Origin: Microcoleus sp. FACHB-672
Lineage (GTDB): Bacteria; Cyanobacteriota; Cyanobacteriia; Cyanobacteriales; Oscillatoriaceae
Assembly (NCBI RefSeq): GCF_014695725.1
Contig: NZ_JACJOU010000016.1
Span: forward strand, 124,001-188,000
Length of the DNA stretch: 64,000 nt
Direction of reading: 5' to 3'
The notes under the pieces were generated by a model that did not search any database, was not told the DNA's origin, and saw only the letters and a list, made by a program, of their open reading frames with translations. Shown piece by piece: positions 9,088 to 17,153 of the stretch. Every line of letters starts with the position of its first letter. The stretch's first letter is position 1. The translations under genes were made by a program, and so were the position numbers.

Positions 9088-9205
9088 TTAATATTTGTAG
9101 CACAGTAGGGATTGATCATCGGCACTCACGCTCAGAAATTGCCCATCACTCGTAAAAGAAGTAAGGGTTAATATTTGTTTAGGAGTTCTTGGGATTAAAC
9201 TCTCA
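9088..9205 (-). pseudogene. Remnant of a WD40-repeat protein
   Basis: One minus-strand frame between the stop codons at 9206 and 9088 reads SFTSDGQFLSVSADDQSLL followed by CYKY and a stop. This has the rhythm of a terminal WD40 blade (SPDG-x-L-x-S-x-S-x-D). There is no start codon or room for a full blade, so it is the C-terminal scrap of a lost gene directly downstream of the broken M23 gene. It is small, so chance cannot be excluded. Confidence 0.4.
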
Positions 9206-10077
9206 GCCTATCATGAGATTCCCACTGACCTGTATAGCCAGCCGATGCGAGTCGAGAGTAAAACGAACTGCCAAATTGGTACAGGAGCCGGCGCAGTCCT
9301 GTTGTTACGAGACTGATTGGCAAGTAGTCATTCCATTGCTGTCCAATTTCAGGAGTTGTCAAGGGAAGTTTAGGCATTGCCATAAATAGTAGTGCCAACG
9401 CCGGCTCGTTTCCCTCTAAACGGTGGAACATAAAGCAATCCTCATTCCGGCTAAAAAATAATTTCCCTTTGCCAGAGTCGAGATAAAAGGAACCATCCAC
9501 AGCCATCCTGACTGTGGCAACAATCTGGCCGATCACTCGATTCTTTTCCATCATCGTAAAATGCAGTTGGGTTTCAAGGGGAAATGTGAACACCTGCACC
9601 AAGGAAGCAGCAGAAGCAACAGGTTCAAGTGCGTTTCCTTCCACCGGCACACTTTCAGCCTGAAATTCCCCATCCACATTGAGATTAGCAAAACTGAACG
9701 GAACCGTTGCTGCACCCAATTCAGGCGTGAGTTGTACCTGAACGTGAATGTGCGGTTGAGGAGAATAGCTAGAATTACCGCAACGTCCGAGTAAAGCACC
9801 GCGCTCGATGCGATCACCCAAATTCACTACAATGCTATTTTGAGCGAAATGGGAAATTTCGACATAAAAACCGCGCTCGTCGTAAAGCACAACGCAGTTG
9901 CCCCAGTTATTATCTTGATCGACGCTGCCGGTTGCACAGTCCGCTAAATCTTTCACCACTCGAACAACCCAGCCCCGAACCGGCGACAGAACCGGCTTTT
10001 GAAACGCATAATAATCTTTCAATTCCAAGCCACTGCCGCGATACGTGCAACCGTTCTCATCTTGAATTAAAAAATCA
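9195..10077 (-). pseudogene. C-terminal part of the urea transporter-M23 peptidase fusion, cut by the IS element
   Basis: Carries most of an M23 (LytM-type) metallopeptidase domain: SPVRGWVVRVV, the WGNCVVLYDERGFYVEISHFA strands, GDRIERGALLGRCGNSS, and the catalytic HxH as HIHVQVQ. About 170 more residues of family-specific C-terminal tail follow. Reading upstream of the first possible start (TTG at 10028) the same frame continues without a stop to the edge of the insertion at 10077. Removing the IS plus one copy of the 8-bp target duplication joins it in frame to the 10834-10942 segment, restoring HQGLWRYAYDFLIQDENG with the other zinc ligands (H and D). A shortened product from TTG 10028 is possible but would lack those ligands. 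Confidence 0.85.
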
Positions 10078-10833
10078 GGCGTTGCTGAAAGTGTAAGGAA
10101 CTAAGCTGGCAGGGGAACCGTTCGGTACTTTAAGTAATGAAGCAGTAACCGAAGTGAACACTTCAGCATCTCGACAGACTTGGAATAGCACAGGGTCTTG
10201 CGGTGCAATCGTGCTAAGTAGTGCTGTAGACGGGTGTTCTCGCTTTCCACGCGGGTCATATAGGTTTTGCTGATCATCTGGTCACCCGCATCGAAGAACA
10301 TTGGGTAAACCTTCCAGCCATCAGTGACATAGAAGAAACACTGCCAGCACTTGACAATCAACCACAACGACTCGAAGGTTGCCGCACTGCGATCACCGAT
10401 TACCCATGCCAAAATACCTGCTTGAAAGTGATTGACTGCAGTCCAAATCCAAATCTTGTTGCGCTTGTTGCCCACAAAGGTTTGCAGTTCATCCAAGTCG
10501 CTTACTTCTGGGATTTCTTCAGCTTCGGGGGCATCACTGAGTTGGTGTCCTGCCTCTCGAATCCAGTGCATGACAGTGGTGTGATGAATCTCGGTGACTC
10601 GTTCGATGCCGCGCAACCCCATGCCATTGAGATACATTTTGATGCACAGTTGCTTGACATCGTCGGAGTAAGCCCACCGACGGTAGGACTCAAGGAATTG
10701 ACGAGAACACTGCTTGCACTTGTAGCATTGTCTGCCACGACGATGCCCGTTTTTAGCGGTTTGAGTGGAGTGACATTGAGGACATTTCATGACTTTATTG
10801 TACTCAACCTAGCATTACTCTTTCAGCAACGCC
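10078..10833 (-). mobile_element. Complete IS1-family insertion sequence, 756 bp
   Basis: Terminal inverted repeats are perfect over 14 bp: GGCGTTGCTGAAAG at 10078-10091 and CTTTCAGCAACGCC at 10820-10833. The element is flanked by an 8-bp direct repeat AAAAATCA (10070-10077 and 10834-10841), within the usual target-duplication size for IS1. It carries one transposase gene on the minus strand, in the same direction as the gene it interrupts. Intact ends, intact transposase and identical target repeats indicate a recent insertion. Confidence 0.97.
10101..10790 (-). CDS. IS1 family transposase (single-frame)
   Basis: The 229-residue DDE transposase combines the InsA-like zinc-binding and helix-turn-helix part with the InsB-like catalytic part in one frame, so it would not need the programmed frameshift of classical IS1. 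The N-terminus has CPQC near residue 3 and CYKCKQC near residue 22. A helix-turn-helix is around LRGIERVTEIHHTTVMHWI. Catalytic acidic positions are seen in SDLDELQTFVG/KIWIWTAV, YVTDGWKVY, and VESENTRLQHYLARLHRKT, the last being the classic IS1 E-region. The reading frame is uninterrupted. Confidence 0.96.
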   Translation of the reverse strand: MKCPQCHSTQTAKNGHRRGRQCYKCKQCSRQFLESYRRWAYSDDVKQLCIKMYLNGMGLRGIERVTEIHHTTVMHWIREAGHQLSDAPEAEEIPEVSDLDELQTFVGNKRNKIWIWTAVNHFQAGILAWVIGDRSAATFESLWLIVKCWQCFFYVTDGWKVYPMFFDAGDQMISKTYMTRVESENTRLQHYLARLHRKTLCYSKSVEMLKCSLRLLLHYLKYRTVPLPA

Positions 10834-10942
10834 AAAAATCATAGGCGTAGCGCCACAAACCCTGATGTGTCCATTGCCCGTCAAACCCCTGCCATACAGT
10901 CCAGCAGCCGGCAAACGTTCTGCCACTGCCCTGATACCGCAA
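10834..10942 (-). pseudogene. N-terminal piece of the M23 domain, between frameshift and IS
   Basis: This frame reads RYQGSGRTFAGCW, TVWQGFDGQWTHQG and LWRYAYDF up to the IS border, carrying the first M23 zinc ligands (the H of THQG and the D of AYDF). It is a different frame from the upstream urea-transporter domain, whose frame runs out at 10881. The two domains are joined in one protein in some bacteria, and a switch of frame around 10935-10960 would restore the fusion. A separate gene starting at TTG 10942 is the alternative, but no ribosome site is evident. Confidence 0.75.
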
Positions 10943-12047
10943 TCTTCGCCGTGAGTTCGGAGTCTAGGGTCATTTCTGGCGAAGACTGGGGAAATCTCGC
11001 CAACAAGCGATAGCCGGCCAACCCCAACACGTAAAGCAGCAACAAAGTCACCAAATTGTAAGGCAGCGCGTGCACCGGCAGCGCCACCGCCGCCCAGAAT
11101 ACACTCGCGGCTTCCCCCAAAACAGCCGCCAGCGCAACACCAAGGGCAGCTAATGCGTAACTGCTGGGAGAAGGCAGCAAATAAAATCCACCTAGTGCTA
11201 ATACCACCAAAATAAAATTTAAGGCAGATGGATCGTAGTAAACATAGGCAAAGGTGCCGGTTAGTGTTGCCCGAATAAAGGTTCCTAACGCATAGCCAGA
11301 GACCGCCAGCAAAAACTGAATTCGCGAATTTCGTAACAGTAGCAACGCCACCGCCGTCCCCACCCAGACATTCGGCAAGAAAAAAATCAGCCCGAGTGTC
11401 CGCAGAAAGCCTTCAAAAGGCAACGGCAAGCCGACAGAATATGCGTAAGCTGGCACAATTGCCGGTTGTAAGCCGGCATAACGAAACGCCGCTAAATGCA
11501 CAATCCAACTCACGGCAATAAACGGCAAACTTAACACCGGCAAAAACAAAAATGTATGCAAAATGTGTGACAGCGCCCACGTTAAAATAAACGCCATCAC
11601 GCCGGCAGCCGCCGCCAGAAACAGGGATGCAACTGCCGGTTGAAATAGGTAACCAACGCTCAACCCTGCTAGAAACGGATTAAATAAAAAGGGTGCGCGG
11701 TCGAGATAACTTTGCTTTAGTTGCGCCATCTTTGCAAAGGCAACGGCTGCCAGCACCCCCATCAATCCCATCAGCAGCACACCAGGTTGCAGCAGCATCG
11801 CCGCTAGCAGCAGCGCCCCTGTTTGAACACCACGTAGGAAGAGGATTTCGGCAGTCGCAGCGCACACAGCAGCCGACAGGTGCCGGAGAAACTGCTGCCA
11901 CGGGCGCGGCAATACCTGTAGAGGGGAGGTTCGCTGATTTTGGATTTTGGATTTTGAATTTTGGATTTTGCCGGCCTGAGAATTCGGTTGTTTTTGGGCT
12001 GGCAACTTTAGCCGGCCTAGAATGGAGCGAGAATGCAAACCTCCCAT
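10881..12047 (-). pseudogene. Urea transporter domain of a broken UT-M23 fusion
   Basis: Integral membrane urea-channel-type domain with about ten hydrophobic segments. Recognisable UT blocks are FNPFLAGLSVGYLF, LSLPFIAVSWIVHLAAF, FLPNVWVGTAVALLLLR and the following SRIQFLLAVSGYALG. The ATG at 12047 lies 4 bp after the decarboxylase stop, so this is the fourth gene of the operon. The N-terminal 40 residues are partly encoded by a heptamer repeat (11936-11970), so the true start is uncertain. The last 20 or so codons, up to 10881, look like out-of-frame reading of the M23 linker, implying a frameshift near 10935-10960. The truncated protein could still be made. Confidence 0.8.
11936..11970. 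repeat. Heptamer tandem repeat (GATTTTG x5)
   Basis: Five contiguous 7-mers: GATTTTG three times, AATTTTG, GATTTTG. Heptameric short tandem repeats are a known cyanobacterial genome feature. This one lies within the apparent N-terminal coding part of the urea transporter (35 bp, not a multiple of three), so expansion or contraction would shift the frame. Confidence 0.9.
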
Positions 12048-12051
12048 ATTC

Positions 12052-13440
12052 TTAATCTCCCTGAGTGCTGCTAAAGGACTGCAAACCTGCATTCGGTGCC
12101 AGAAAGGGCGGCAAATATTCCCGGCGTTCCAAGTCGCTGAGGTCTTCCGCAGCACGAATCAGTTCAACGTTGCCGGCTTCTGTTACCAAAACCACATTGG
12201 GCCGGTATTCTATGAATTGCAGCCATTGCGTGTTGTTGTACGCGCCTACCGTGGAGATGACGAACCGCGTCCCGCGAGACAGAGGTGGCAAAGAAATCGC
12301 TTCATCCACCACATCAATGTTCATGCACATTGGCCCGTAAATCACTGATGGTTCGCAAACACCGGCAACATGGCGATCTAGGGCAATATCAAAGCGATAC
12401 CAAAAGCTGGTAAAGAGCAAGTTGACGCCGGCATCCACCACATAAGCACGAGTGCCGTCAGGAAGCCGCTTCGTGCCGCAAACCGTCGTGATCAGCGTGC
12501 CGGCTTCATCAACCACCGCCCGTCCCGACTCGACAATTAATTTTGGAGTAAGTCCGGGTTTCAAGTTCGCCCACAGCGCATCGCACACCGCCTCTGCATA
12601 TTCGTCAATGTGCGGCAATAACACCTCTGCTGCGTGGTAACTGCCTTTTAATCGGCTGCGGGAAGGCAAGCCGCCACCAATATCGATGTACTCCATTCGC
12701 CAGCCGCAAGCGGCTTCAATTTCGTAGCCAAACTTCACCATTTTCTCCACCTGCCGGCCATAAGCTGCCGGTTCGGTGATAAAGGTGCCGATGTGGCTGT
12801 GCAGTCCTCTGACGCGCAATTTGCCGCCATTTTGGATGCGCCGAATCACGTCCATTGCTTGACCCGATTCTAAATTAAAGCCAAAACGCGACCACCGGGG
12901 TTGAATTCCCACATCTAAATTGAGTCGAAGTCCAACCGAAATCACTTGTCCGAGGCGAGTAGAAATTGCCTCTAAATCTTCAATTTCATCTAAATGATCA
13001 ATATTAATGATGACGCTATCTTTAACCGCCGCTTCCAGAGTTTCAAAAGGTTTGTGCGGCCCGTTAAAAATAATTTGATTTCCGGGAATTCCTAGGGCTT
13101 TGGCTTTGTCATATTCCATTTTTGACACCAGTTCCGCCATCGCGCCTTCCTGGTGCAAAATCGCGCAAATTGCTTTTAAGTAATTGGTTTTGTAAGACCA
13201 ACCAAACGTGACATCAGGGTAACGGGTGGCAAACGCATTGCGAATGGTGCGGAACTGTCGGCGCAGGGTTCGTTCTGAATAAACAAACAGCGGTGAACCA
13301 AATTGGGTAACCAGATCATCGACAGAGATGCCGGCAACGGCTGTTTTTACACGACGCTGGGGAGGAATTGCGCCGGCAAACTTATTCATCAAGCCGCTGT
13401 GCAATTTTTGGATCGCCGGTTTTTGGTATTGAATCTGCAT
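12052..13440 (-). CDS. PLP-dependent decarboxylase (fold type III, LysA/BtrK-like)
   Basis: Alanine-racemase-fold decarboxylase of the ornithine/diaminopimelate/arginine decarboxylase 2 family, 462 residues. Visible motifs: SYKTNYLKAI near residue 90 with the PLP-binding lysine; the GLHSHIGT phosphate-pocket histidines near residue 215; the glycine loop DIGGGLPS; the VESGRAVVDEAG block; and the C-terminal PMCMNIDV segment, with cysteine as in the CE(S/T)-type active site of the partner subunit. The substrate is unlikely to be free DAP alone given the context: it follows an ATP-grasp ligase by 1 bp and a PqqD-like gene, reminiscent of the ATP-grasp plus decarboxylase pair in butirosin side-chain synthesis (analogy only). 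Confidence 0.88.
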   Translation of the reverse strand: MQIQYQKPAIQKLHSGLMNKFAGAIPPQRRVKTAVAGISVDDLVTQFGSPLFVYSERTLRRQFRTIRNAFATRYPDVTFGWSYKTNYLKAICAILHQEGAMAELVSKMEYDKAKALGIPGNQIIFNGPHKPFETLEAAVKDSVIINIDHLDEIEDLEAISTRLGQVISVGLRLNLDVGIQPRWSRFGFNLESGQAMDVIRRIQNGGKLRVRGLHSHIGTFITEPAAYGRQVEKMVKFGYEIEAACGWRMEYIDIGGGLPSRSRLKGSYHAAEVLLPHIDEYAEAVCDALWANLKPGLTPKLIVESGRAVVDEAGTLITTVCGTKRLPDGTRAYVVDAGVNLLFTSFWYRFDIALDRHVAGVCEPSVIYGPMCMNIDVVDEAISLPPLSRGTRFVISTVGAYNNTQWLQFIEYRPNVVLVTEAGNVELIRAAEDLSDLERREYLPPFLAPNAGLQSFSSTQGD

Positions 13441-13441
13441 T

Positions 13442-14560
13442 TTATCCCTCTCCTGTTGTGACTAATGTTTGTAAAGGTGTGGTATCTGTAATGATTTCGT
13501 AGGTGTAGCGCATGAATAATTTGCCGGCAGCATAAGTAGGGAGTGCCGGCAGAGGTAAGCCCATCGCTGCACGCACCAAACGTGAGGGCAAATTAATTCC
13601 CACGCCCGTTGCAAAGTACGCCCATGCTGGAAAACGGGGGTTAATTTCAATCAGATAAATCGTGCCGTCGCGTGAGGCAATACATTCCAATTCAAACGGC
13701 CCTTTCCAGTTGGTATGCTGTAAAAATGCCTCGGCTGCTGCCAATAAATCTGGATGATGGATCGTGATCGCGCTCCAAACTTTTCCGAGTTCGGTCACGC
13801 TCATCTTTTTAATCGTCACCATGCCGAGATGCTTGCCTTTCCCATCTCCGACTCCCACCAAATTTAGCTCAATTCCGTTAACAATTTGCTGTAAAAGAAT
13901 CGGATATCCCCATTCCGATGCTAACTGGTGAAACCGCTGCAATGCCTCGCCATTGGTCGCGACTCGATACGCTTTGTAATACGGGCCTTTAATCATCAAC
14001 GGAAATCCTAATTCCGCTGTTGCTTCATCTAGTTCACGCGCCGAAGTTACTGAGATTGTTTTGGGAGTGCTGAGACCAAAAGCGCTAGCTGCTTCTACAA
14101 GATTTACTTTATTTCGTAAAGCAAATTGCACTTTAGTCGGCAAATAAACGCGAATACCCAACGCTTCTAGTTCTTGGGAATAGCGAATGTAAAGTGGCAA
14201 CTCCACATCAAAATTGGGAATGATACAATCTAGCCCAATTTGCTCTTTAATCTGCCGCAACCGCTCTAAGAAAATCTCTGGTTCGGTGGAGGGATAGGGC
14301 ATTATATAGCGGCGATCAAATAGCCAATCCATATAAAGCCCCGGTTCCATCGCATCGTAAGCCAGACCAATAATTTTGATCGATAATTCTTGATCTTCTC
14401 GCAAGCTTCTGGCAACGCCAGTACCAGGGCCAGGATTGTCTATCGCATTGATGCCGGTGACGGTAACAGTTAAAGTCTTTTGGATTTTGGAAGCTGCTGA
14501 AGTTGGGTACTGTTGGGCATCTGAATCGGATATATTTTCCAAGGATGTTAGGTGTGTCAT
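13442..14560 (-). CDS. ATP-grasp carboxylate-amine ligase
   Basis: Predicted ATP-dependent ligase forming an amide or related bond between a carboxylate and an amine. The protein has about 372 residues. It shows an N-terminal NAD-like substrate domain, then the ATP-grasp core: FPLMIKGPYYKAYRV (ATP-binding lysine, around residue 185), ILLQQIVNGIELNLVGV, and the metal-binding end GPFELECIASRDGTIYLIEINPRFPAW with the E and N ligands. The chosen ATG at 14560 overlaps the stop of the PqqD-like gene by one base (TGATG) and has GGAGGG just upstream; a GTG three bases earlier is also possible. The downstream decarboxylase starts 1 bp after its stop. Substrate unknown. Confidence 0.88.
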   Translation of the reverse strand: MTHLTSLENISDSDAQQYPTSAASKIQKTLTVTVTGINAIDNPGPGTGVARSLREDQELSIKIIGLAYDAMEPGLYMDWLFDRRYIMPYPSTEPEIFLERLRQIKEQIGLDCIIPNFDVELPLYIRYSQELEALGIRVYLPTKVQFALRNKVNLVEAASAFGLSTPKTISVTSARELDEATAELGFPLMIKGPYYKAYRVATNGEALQRFHQLASEWGYPILLQQIVNGIELNLVGVGDGKGKHLGMVTIKKMSVTELGKVWSAITIHHPDLLAAAEAFLQHTNWKGPFELECIASRDGTIYLIEINPRFPAWAYFATGVGINLPSRLVRAAMGLPLPALPTYAAGKLFMRYTYEIITDTTPLQTLVTTGEG

Positions 14561-14805
14561 CACTTCCCTCCTTCCAGTCCAAATAAATTGAGTTGCCCAA
14601 AAAAGTCTGCTACATCTCGTTGGGCAGCGCTTTGGGGAATTCCAAATTTTTCTGAGAGAAAATCGGCAACTTGGTTTTGGTTTTCACCGAGCTGCAAACG
14701 CTGCAACACTAGCCACTCACAAGGATTCAAGGTGTAACTTTCCCCGGTGCGCGGGTCAAAAGCAAATCCGTCTTCGGTAACATCAAGTAATTGAGTGTGC
14801 GTCAT
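14560..14805 (-). CDS. PqqD-like small protein (RRE fold)
   Basis: First gene of the operon; 81 residues. The sequence follows the PqqD/RiPP-recognition-element pattern: an early hydrophobic strand, DPRTGESYTLNPCEWLVLQRL near residue 18 onward (given here in part: GESYTLN and WLVLQRL), then helices VADFLSEKFGIP and AAQRDVADFFGQL. PqqD-type proteins bind a leader peptide and present it to a modifying enzyme. No precursor peptide gene is evident beside it, so the partner could be a protein, a distant peptide or an amino acid. I chose ATG 14805 because AGAGGAAC lies 8-9 bp upstream; a TTG at 14829 is weaker. Confidence 0.75.
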   Translation of the reverse strand: MTHTQLLDVTEDGFAFDPRTGESYTLNPCEWLVLQRLQLGENQNQVADFLSEKFGIPQSAAQRDVADFFGQLNLFGLEGGK

Positions 14806-14928: not shown

Positions 14929-15612
14929 ATGAATATCCTGTATGTCGAAGACGAAGCGAAAATTGGCAACTTTGTCTGCGCCGGCTTGAAGGAACAAGGT
15001 TTTGTTGTGGATTATTGCGACTGCGGCAATGAGGGTTATATGCGCGCAATGGACAACGAATATGATGTGGTGGTACTCGACATTATGTTGCCTGGGAAGG
15101 ATGGATTGGCTATCCTCAAAAGCCTGCGTCGGGCCGGTCGGAATGTACCAGTGATTTTGCTGACGGCTCGTAACGAACTTGATGACCGGCTCGAAGGTCT
15201 TAATCTGGGCGCAGACGACTATTTATCCAAACCGTTTTTTGTCCAAGAACTAATTGCCCGTATTCATGCAGTAGTGCGCCGTGTGTCTGGGGAACGCCAG
15301 AATGTGCTGCATGTTGGGACTCTGGCGCTGGATCGCATTAGCCGCGAAGTCACCTGCAATAACCAGTTGGTGGAACTGACTGCCCGCGAGTTTAATTTGC
15401 TGGAGTACCTCATGCGTTCGCCGGGACGGGTATTTACCCGCACACAAATTCTTGAACACGTCTGGGGTTACGATTTTGACACCAACACGAATTTGGTGGA
15501 TGTCTGCATTCAGCGGTTGCGGAAAAAGCTGGAACGCGTAGGCGGGGATGACTGGCTCGAAAGCGTGCGCGGAGTTGGTTATCGGTTTCGTAAGCCGGAG
15601 TCCGGATCATGA
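14929..15612 (+). CDS. OmpR/PhoB-family response regulator
   Basis: DNA-binding response regulator of 227 residues. The receiver domain has acidic pocket residues E7-D8, phosphorylation site D51 in VVVLDIMLPG, T79-type switch in LLTARNELDD and K101-type lysine in DDYLSKPF. The C-terminal winged helix (about 130-225) ends with the usual RGVGYRF. It resembles CusR/RppA-like members by eye. The stop overlaps the start of the kinase gene by 4 bp (ATGA). It is divergent from the PqqD/ATP-grasp operon with only about 120 bp between them, which makes that operon a reasonable target (inference). Confidence 0.95.
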   Translation: MNILYVEDEAKIGNFVCAGLKEQGFVVDYCDCGNEGYMRAMDNEYDVVVLDIMLPGKDGLAILKSLRRAGRNVPVILLTARNELDDRLEGLNLGADDYLSKPFFVQELIARIHAVVRRVSGERQNVLHVGTLALDRISREVTCNNQLVELTAREFNLLEYLMRSPGRVFTRTQILEHVWGYDFDTNTNLVDVCIQRLRKKLERVGGDDWLESVRGVGYRFRKPESGS

Positions 15613-17153
15613 AGTTGCATTCTTTTCGCCTGCGAATTGCGCTGCTATCTGCAATGTTGGCCGGCACTGCTTTGGCCGGTTTTGCAGGGGTATCTTTTAT
15701 GCTGATTTATCAAGCAAAACTGACTCGCCTCGACAGCGACATTAGAAGCCAGTTGCTACAACAAGCTTTGCGCCGGCCTGAACATACCAACTGGTCGTTC
15801 TACGAGAAAGAGTTACCCTCTGTGTTGGGCACAGATTCTCAGACGCCCATCGGTGTGCTAGTGGCTGGCCGGCAAGGGGAAACCATCTATCAATCTAGCA
15901 ACTGGCCGTCTTCTGTGGATCTCGCTACAACTTGGTTGCCCCCGTCTGGGCAATTACCGCCACAACCTAGACCGTTTCCGCAGCAGCCTGGAAACCACCC
16001 GCTTCCGCAACCTAGGCAAGAGGCAGCCAGTGGTTTTGGGGAACCGCCGTCACGTTTCCCAGAGGAACTGCCGGCTCAACTGAATGACCAGATGGCAAGA
16101 CAGATTAAAGTGATGACGAAATCTAGTCACAATGCGGCTTGGCGTGTGGGTGTGCTGATACCACCGCTGCCTCGAATTGGGACTGCAATCAGTTTGGAGG
16201 GAATTGACCGAGAAATGAGTGCGATCCGCAACGGCTTTCTAATTTCAGTGCCGGTGGGGCTTGTGGCAGTGGCGTTTGGGGCGTGGGCGCTTTCAGGGAC
16301 CGCCTTAAAGCCGCTGCGGGAAGTAAGTGCAAAGATCCAGCAGGTGAGTGCAACAGGGCTAGACCGGCGCATTTCAACCGGCACAGCAGATGTGGAGTTT
16401 CGCGAACTGCTACAAGTTTTCAACCAAATGATGGAACGTCTCGAACGTAGTTTCAAGCAGGCTTCTCGCTTTAGTGCTGATGCCGCCCACGAACTCAAAA
16501 CTCCTCTATCAATTTTACAAGGGCAGTTGGAACGGACGCTGCAACAAGCTGAACCCGGTTCGGAATTACAGGAAAACTTGGGTCATTTGCTGGATGAAGT
16601 TTCTCACCTCCGAGAAATCGTTCGCAAACTCTTGTTGCTGTCGCTGGCAGATGCCGGTCAAATGCGTTTGCTCTTAGTTGAGGTAAATTTGTCGAAAATC
16701 TTGGCTGATTTAACTGAGGATGTGGAAATGCTCGCGCCTGATTTGCAGGTATTCTCAACGGTTGAGCCGGCATTATTGTTAAAGGGTGATCGTGATTTGC
16801 TGCTGCAGGTTTTGCACAATTTAACGAACAATGCGATTAAATACAATTTGCCCAAGGGTTGGCTGCGGATTGAGACACAACGCAAAAAAGGTACGATTTC
16901 TGTCAAAGTGAGCAATAGTTCACGAGATATTTCTGCGCGTGACCGGCAGCGACTTTTTGAGCGTTTCTATCGGGGAGATCCGAGTCGCACTCACCAAATT
17001 GAAGGACTGGGTTTAGGCTTAAGTTTGTCGAGAGAAATTGCTCGCGCTCACGGTGGCGACTTGAAGCTAGACTCCACGCCTGCCGGTCAAACGGCTTTTA
17101 CTCTGACATTGCCGGCTATTCAATCAATTAAGTTCAAGCCAGAACACGCGTAA
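15609..17153 (+). CDS. Membrane sensor histidine kinase (HAMP)
   Basis: Cognate kinase of the preceding regulator; 514 residues. Layout: membrane segment about 10-33, a roughly 170-residue extracytoplasmic sensor with a proline/glutamine-rich stretch around residues 118-140, second membrane segment about 203-226, HAMP, HisKA with SADAAHELKTPLSIL (phospho-His near 297), and HATPase_c with NLTNNAIKYN and GLGLGLSLSREIARAHGG. The signal it reads is unknown. The extracytoplasmic domain would suit an envelope or metal cue, which would match the envelope-type UT-M23 protein encoded divergently. Confidence 0.94.
   Translation: MKLHSFRLRIALLSAMLAGTALAGFAGVSFMLIYQAKLTRLDSDIRSQLLQQALRRPEHTNWSFYEKELPSVLGTDSQTPIGVLVAGRQGETIYQSSNWPSSVDLATTWLPPSGQLPPQPRPFPQQPGNHPLPQPRQEAASGFGEPPSRFPEELPAQLNDQMARQIKVMTKSSHNAAWRVGVLIPPLPRIGTAISLEGIDREMSAIRNGFLISVPVGLVAVAFGAWALSGTALKPLREVSAKIQQVSATGLDRRISTGTADVEFRELLQVFNQMMERLERSFKQASRFSADAAHELKTPLSILQGQLERTLQQAEPGSELQENLGHLLDEVSHLREIVRKLLLLSLADAGQMRLLLVEVNLSKILADLTEDVEMLAPDLQVFSTVEPALLLKGDRDLLLQVLHNLTNNAIKYNLPKGWLRIETQRKKGTISVKVSNSSRDISARDRQRLFERFYRGDPSRTHQIEGLGLGLSLSREIARAHGGDLKLDSTPAGQTAFTLTLPAIQSIKFKPEHA

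What the first reader, a model, noticed from the sequence alone, without database searches (positions are those of the whole stretch)
12047..14805. Compact operon PqqD-like / ATP-grasp / PLP decarboxylase / urea-transporter-M23: candidate undescribed pathway
Seen: four genes with 1-nt overlap, 1-nt and 4-nt gaps, so they are made together. Known: PqqD/RRE proteins present peptides to modifying enzymes; ATP-grasp plus fold-III decarboxylase pairs extend carrier-bound amino acids in butirosin synthesis; M23 domains act on peptidoglycan. Inferred: a small amino-acid-derived or peptide-derived product, linked to the envelope by the UT-M23 protein. No precursor peptide is visible, which is itself unusual.
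Basis: partly seen in the sequence, partly recalled or inferred. Interest (0 to 1): 0.75.

Follow-up and report, generated by a model that had tools for sequence, protein, structure and literature searches.

The report
Enzyme carries RiPP-leader-like tail for RRE
A rare, conserved cyanobacterial gene set pairs a small peptide-grabbing protein with two enzymes, and instead of a separate precursor peptide the recognition tag appears to sit on the end of one of the enzymes, a use of this recognition system that I did not find described.

Summary
The operon is real and its four-gene order recurs in diverse cyanobacteria; ATP-grasp, decarboxylase and UT-M23 turned up in the same 3 of about 280-390 sampled genomes. 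The 81-residue protein has a PqqD/RRE fold; its nearest solved relatives are lasso-peptide B1 proteins bound to leaders. I find a likely ligand: the PLP decarboxylase has an extra N-terminal tail, Y[EQ]xPxIxxLxxGL[MI]NKFA, as conserved as the catalytic body, joined by a variable linker, and starting with the YxxPx[L/I] motif that lasso-type RREs bind. RRE positions that hold Tyr and Pro in the LppB complex (N33, D70, F74) are invariant here (N27, D64, F68). GL[MI]NKFA occurs once per genome, only on the decarboxylase. One genome lacks RRE, decarboxylase and UT-M23 but keeps ATP-grasp. The decarboxylase resembles N-citrylornithine decarboxylase, so ligation then decarboxylation is the likely chemistry; the substrate is unknown. 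In this genome UT-M23 is broken (frameshifts plus an IS1-family insertion), and an envelope role is not supported. Best reading: an RRE used as a docking adaptor for an enzyme. RRE-tail binding is inferred, not shown.

The parts
14560..14805 (-). PqqD-like discrete RRE, 81 aa; invariant L26, N27, C29, D64, F68 match the YxxP-contact positions of LppB
   Evidence: PMC13381572
13442..14560 (-). ATP-grasp ligase (PRK12767 / 2pn1-like), about 372 aa; first 27 aa absent from relatives
12052..13440 (-). Alanine-racemase-fold PLP decarboxylase, 462 aa, FslC/FigC-like; K84, H216, G255-257, R307, C372, Y401 present
13375..13428 (-). Leader-like N-terminal tail of the decarboxylase (residues 5-22, YQKPAIQKLHSGLMNKFA), proposed RRE ligand
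9103..12047 (-). UT-M23 gene, a pseudogene in this genome (frameshifts and IS insertion); single ORF in relatives
10078..10833 (.). IS1-family element inside the UT-M23 gene; transposase 10101-10790 (-); 19-bp inverted ends; flanking 8-bp AAAAATCA at 10070-10077 and 10834-10841
14929..17153 (+). Divergent OmpR-type response regulator and histidine kinase; neighbour in 8 of 13 loci, also found without the operon; possible regulator

Best explanation
The operon makes a small amide-type metabolite in two steps, using an RRE as a docking adaptor rather than as a precursor-peptide chaperone. Step 1 (inferred): the ATP-grasp enzyme couples a carboxylic acid or amino acid to an amino acid, forming an amide. 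Step 2 (inferred from enzyme subfamily): the PLP decarboxylase removes the alpha-carboxylate of the conjugate. Docking (inferred from sequence, not shown physically): the PqqD-like protein binds the decarboxylase's N-terminal YxxPxI tail in the cleft that lasso-type RREs use for leaders, and so tethers the decarboxylase to the ATP-grasp partner or to a membrane partner. UT-M23 would move or process the product or a by-product in genomes where it is intact. RRE-tail binding alone I put at about 0.7; the ligase-then-decarboxylase order at about 0.5.
For: Gene order conserved in 12 of 13 loci including the window, with purifying selection (dN 0.12-0.24, dS near saturation). The same three genomes carry ATP-grasp (3/386), UT-M23 (3/292) and decarboxylase (3/283). 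RRE fold: the TbiB1 and TfuB1 leader complexes are the top structural matches, Z 11.2-11.7 with 80 residues aligned, and the top profile matches, E 3.6e-10 for TfuB1. LppB residues that contact YxxP (L32, N33, V35, D70, F74; PMC13381572) align without gaps to invariant L26, N27, C29, D64, F68. N33 and D70 are the pair that paper ties to Tyr-type leaders, and the tail has an invariant Tyr. Tail residues 5-22 have mean conservation 0.88 with 10 of 18 invariant, against 0.89 for the body and 0.62 for the linker. YxxPx[LVIFA] near the N-terminus was found in 1 of 189 other long ORFs. GL[MI]NKFA occurs once per genome in 11 genomes, in the decarboxylase. RRE and decarboxylase are both missing from the L003 genome, which keeps ATP-grasp. 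The FigC active-site change M355 and loss of the ODC/DAPDC side-chain charges are shared.
Against: No physical interaction was tested and no complex could be modelled with the tools at hand. YxxPxI is short. Co-loss of RRE and decarboxylase rests on one genome of unknown completeness, and UT-M23 went with them. The RRE model has moderate confidence (pLDDT 76, pTM 0.62). Discrete lasso-type RRE profiles are known to attract wHTH false positives (PMC7470986). The invariant GL[MI]NKFA part is longer than RRE binding needs, so it may do something else. Citrate-contact residues of FigC (H357, R387) are I375 and Q405 here, so the acyl group is probably not citrate and remains unknown.
Confidence: 0.52

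Rival explanations
1. The tail is itself a modified peptide: GL[MI]NKFA is a core-like segment that the ATP-grasp enzyme modifies, or that carries an intermediate (for example on invariant Lys20 or Asn19), while fused to the decarboxylase; M23 might later cut it.
For: GL[MI]NKFA beyond the YxxPxI part is invariant apart from one Met/Ile change and lies where a core peptide would follow a leader. RRE plus ATP-grasp is a RiPP-like pairing. M23 zinc residues (H371, D380, H455, H488, H490 in L007 numbering) are invariant in relatives.
Against: ATP-grasp is retained alone in the L003 genome without RRE or tail. The enzyme belongs to the PRK12767/CPS-like group rather than to known graspetide ligases. 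The tail is short and fused to a large enzyme. UT-M23 is broken in the window while the other genes stay intact.
Confidence: 0.15
2. The RRE serves an unlinked precursor peptide elsewhere in the genome, and the decarboxylase tail resembles a leader by chance or for another reason (for example dimer or membrane contact).
For: Precursors can lie outside clusters. YxxP is a short motif, expected by chance in about 0.9% of 20-residue stretches.
Against: Invariance of Y5, P8, I10 and L13 in 12 of 12 orthologues; matched Tyr-type RRE residues; no conserved short YxxP ORF near the operons; GL[MI]NKFA found nowhere else in 12 genomes. A precursor with a different core was not sought genome-wide.
Confidence: 0.17
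3. A variant of a known amine pathway: the decarboxylase is a LysA or ornithine/lysine decarboxylase paralogue for polyamine or cadaverine production, with a urea or amide channel, and the PqqD-like protein has a regulatory (DNA-binding) role.
For: LysA model matches at E 4e-64. UT proteins pass small amides (general knowledge). wHTH regulators are structural neighbours of RREs.
Against: Below the LysA cut-off (216.7 vs 297.9 bits); the genome has a separate LysA at 30% identity without the tail. The Asp/Glu next to the catalytic Cys and the specificity-helix Asp/Arg of ODC and DAPDC are replaced. RRE cleft residues are conserved.
Confidence: 0.12

Closest known systems
Discrete lasso-peptide RREs (B1 proteins TbiB1, TfuB1) and LppB of linear polyphosphorylated peptides
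   Same: PqqD-type wHTH fold, top structural matches; conserved YxxP-contact residues; YxxPx[hydrophobic] ligand motif encoded next door
   Different: No separate precursor peptide found; the motif is the N-terminal tail of a catalytic enzyme; no lasso cyclase or B2 protease recognised among the neighbouring genes
N-citrylornithine decarboxylase FslC/FigC and relatives (SbnH, AcsE) in NIS siderophore pathways
   Same: Nearest solved decarboxylase; ligase-plus-decarboxylase logic; Met next to catalytic Cys; WSRFGF and GAYN motifs
   Different: ATP-grasp in place of an NIS synthetase; citrate-contact residues replaced; extra N-terminal tail; below the FslC family cut-off
Butirosin BtrJ (ATP-grasp) and BtrK (decarboxylase)
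   Same: Pairing of ATP-grasp and fold-III decarboxylase
   Different: No acyl carrier protein in the operon; decarboxylase only distantly similar to BtrK (E 1.6e-14)
Pheganomycin-type ATP-grasp ligase pathways with RRE
   Same: ATP-grasp with a presumed RRE (RRE-Finder, PMC7470986; ligase details from general knowledge)
   Different: Pheganomycin has a separate precursor peptide; no PLP decarboxylase with a leader-like tail is known to me
Bacterial urea transporters (dvUT, 3k3f)
   Same: Whole UT domain aligns (E 4.6e-19)
   Different: Fused to an M23 domain plus an unassigned C-terminal part; broken in this genome

Membership tests
PqqD/RRE domain (PF05402) | Profile score above curated cut-off | tested here: met
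   32.5 bits vs 23.4
PqqD/RRE domain (PF05402) | Winged-helix RRE fold | tested here: met
   AF2 model pLDDT 76; 5v1u Z 11.7, 6jx3 Z 11.2, 80 residues aligned
PqqD/RRE domain (PF05402) | Conserved YxxP-binding positions (LppB N33, D70, F74) | tested here: met
   N27, D64, F68 invariant in 11 orthologues
PqqD/RRE domain (PF05402) | Physical binding of a leader peptide | not testable with these tools
   No complex modelling or assay available
Lasso peptide / RiPP cluster | Separate precursor peptide with leader and core near the RRE gene | tested here: not met
   No conserved short YxxP ORF near the operons; GL[MI]NKFA only on the decarboxylase
Lasso peptide / RiPP cluster | B2 protease and Asn-synthetase-like cyclase | not tested
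   None recognised among the ORFs listed; no profile search was run on flanking genes or genome-wide
N-citrylornithine decarboxylase (FslC, NF041039) | Curated score | tested here: not met
   211 bits vs 500
N-citrylornithine decarboxylase (FslC, NF041039) | Citryl-contact residues H357 and R387 | tested here: not met
   I375 and Q405 in the alignment
Alanine-racemase-fold PLP decarboxylases | Both Pfam domains and catalytic Lys, His, Gly loop, Cys | tested here: met
   PF02784 112 bits, PF00278 44 bits; K84, H216, G255-257, C372
Diaminopimelate decarboxylase LysA (TIGR01048) | Curated score | tested here: not met
   216.7 bits vs 297.9
ATP-grasp ligase | Pfam ATP-grasp curated cut-off | tested here: not met
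   PF02222 22.5 vs 27; PF15632 26 vs 29.1
ATP-grasp ligase | Sequence relation to ATP-grasp enzymes and the conserved E-x-N metal/ATP motif | tested here: met
   2pn1 E 8.3e-14, PRK12767 E 2.6e-22; EINPR conserved
Urea transporter (UT) | Pfam UT domain and curated yut urea transporter model | tested here: inconclusive
   PF03253 153.6 vs 25 met; TIGR03441 76.2 vs 274.6 not met
Peptidase M23 | Pfam cut-off and zinc/catalytic residues | tested here: met
   36.6 vs 28.7 bits; H371, D380, H455, H488, H490 invariant in 8 relatives

The most novel reading that the evidence does not exclude
A RiPP recognition element has been taken over as a docking adaptor: it recognises a leader-like tag on the N-terminus of a metabolic enzyme, or the tail is a cis-encoded precursor peptide fused to the decarboxylase and modified in place. 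Either would be a leader/RRE system without a separate precursor peptide, and could account for some of the orphan discrete RREs found outside RiPP clusters.
Probability: 0.6. Interest if true: 0.75.

Novelty: new variant of a known kind. Interest (0 to 1): 0.62.

Why it matters
Discrete RREs are used to mine genomes for peptide natural products, and many hits do not lie next to known RiPP machinery. This locus offers a concrete, testable explanation for one class of such orphans: the leader motif is carried by an enzyme. It also points to an uncharacterised ligation-decarboxylation pathway in cyanobacteria, with a purifiable two-protein interaction that can be tested with two point mutations.

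Tried and rejected
Separate precursor peptide near the operon: 1766 short ORFs scanned, 23 with a YxxP-like match, none recurrent in sequence and place by inspection apart from ORFs antisense to the ATP-grasp and decarboxylase genes. Related systems on plasmids: ATP-grasp at most 31%, decarboxylase at most 33%, no four-gene set; no PqqD-like gene was recognised beside the Antarctobacter, Microvirga and Streptomyces hits. UT-M23 structure prediction failed (pLDDT 45) and was not used. Dedicated two-component regulator: the response regulator also occurs without the operon (G008, G078, G099), so it is a neighbour, not a defining part. Literature searches found no description of this gene set, within the open-licence library only.
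Full report
Observation. Pfam confirms each domain, except that the ATP-grasp protein falls below Pfam cut-offs and is recognised through 2pn1 and PRK12767. The fourth gene is broken in this genome. Relatives encode one protein of about 707-726 aa. Here the frame shifts near 10945, an IS1-family element lies at 10078-10833 with 19-bp inverted ends and the 8-bp direct repeat AAAAATCA on both sides, and the frame shifts again near 9195.

Conservation. A scan of GTDB contigs found 12 loci, all cyanobacterial. In 11 of them, and in the window, the order pqqD, ATP-grasp, decarboxylase is kept. UT-M23 follows in 10 of the 11 and, as a broken gene, in the window; in the eleventh (L009) it lies on another contig. 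In genome samples of the phylum, ATP-grasp was found in 3 of 386 genomes, UT-M23 in 3 of 292 and the decarboxylase in 3 of 283, and these are the same three genomes. The samples overlap, and two of the three genomes correspond to loci L005 and L010, so this is co-occurrence, not independent replication. Two other species of the window's genus lack the UT gene. The intact ATP-grasp and decarboxylase genes are under strong purifying selection.

The small protein. Its AF2 model (pLDDT 76, pTM 0.62) matches the lasso RREs TbiB1 and TfuB1, solved with leader peptides, above anything else (Z 11.2-11.7 over 80 residues). The profile of 11 orthologues also picks TfuB1 (3.6e-10), TbiB1 (1.2e-7) and, weakly, two other chains, 9x90 and 9x8z. 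The paper on LppB (PMC13381572) names L32, N33, V35, D70 and F74 among the residues that hold YxxP. I take 9x8z_B to be LppB because its residues match the paper's numbering at eight positions with a constant offset. On the gapless alignment those positions are L26, N27, C29, D64 and F68 of the window protein, all invariant in its family. Five of nine mapped contact positions are invariant against 16 of 81 overall (hypergeometric P 0.013, a modest figure). The paper ties N33 and D70 to Tyr-type leaders; the paeninodin RRE studied there, which prefers Trp, lacks them.

The tail. The part of the decarboxylase that aligns to solved homologues starts at about residue 30. Residues 5-22 read Y[EQ]xPxIxxLxxGL[MI]NKFA in all 12 orthologues. 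This stretch is as conserved as the catalytic body (0.88 vs 0.89) and is joined to it by a variable linker (0.62). YxxPx[L/V/I/F/A] is the published ligand motif of lasso-type RREs (PMC10368454, PMC13381572). Only 1 of 189 other long ORFs in the loci has such a motif within its first 25 residues. GL[MI]NKFA is present once per genome in the 11 genomes with the decarboxylase and not at all in the L003 genome. The L003 genome keeps a 74%-identical ATP-grasp but has no RRE, no tailed decarboxylase and no UT-M23. The window genome's own LysA lacks the tail. From this I infer that the RRE's ligand is the decarboxylase tail. That inference is sequence-based; no binding was shown.

Chemistry. The nearest solved decarboxylase is N-citrylornithine decarboxylase (1.8e-50), ahead of DAP decarboxylase (2.6e-36) and BtrK (1.6e-14). 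As in FigC, Met follows the catalytic Cys, and the charged residues that recognise free ornithine, lysine or DAP are gone. The residues that bind citrate in FigC are replaced (I375, Q405). I infer a neutral amide conjugate as substrate, made by the ATP-grasp partner; its identity is open.

UT-M23. The UT domain aligns over its length with dvUT. The M23 domain keeps its zinc residues in relatives. Similar M23 proteins with N-terminal hydrophobic segments occur in Haloferax and Thermus, and haloarchaea have no murein (general knowledge). Known UT topology (both ends cytoplasmic, general knowledge) and the Arg-rich segment after the last helix suggest a cytoplasmic M23. This argues against a peptidoglycan role but does not exclude it. 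The structure prediction of this protein was too poor to use.

Context. The divergent response regulator and kinase, often with an LTXXQ (Spy-like) gene, adjoin the operon in about half of the loci, but the same module occurs without it. In four Nostocales loci an OprB porin follows the operon.

Verdict. The lack of a precursor peptide is explained by a leader-like tail on the decarboxylase. I place this as a new variant of RRE-based recognition, not as a lasso or other known RiPP cluster, since a separate precursor was sought near the operon and not found.

Noticed in passing
window 10078-10833: IS1-family insertion with 19-bp inverted ends and an 8-bp target duplication interrupts the UT-M23 gene, which also carries frameshifts.
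   Followed up: yes
L043 2758-3621; L044 2638-3597: M23 proteins of the same subfamily (LPFxGxW...RYAYDF) with N-terminal hydrophobic segments in Haloferax larsenii and Thermus thermophilus; haloarchaea lack murein, so the substrate of this M23 subfamily is puzzling.
   Followed up: partly
window 14929-17153; L037-L039: A response regulator / kinase pair with a divergent LTXXQ-like gene forms a module that recurs with and without the operon.
   Followed up: partly
window 11930-11975 and about 14478-14492: ATTTTGG-type short repeats lie inside the N-terminal coding parts of the UT and ATP-grasp genes, in stretches absent from relatives.
   Followed up: no
L002, L007, L008, L013 downstream of UT-M23: An OprB-family porin directly follows the operon in four Nostocales loci.
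   Followed up: no
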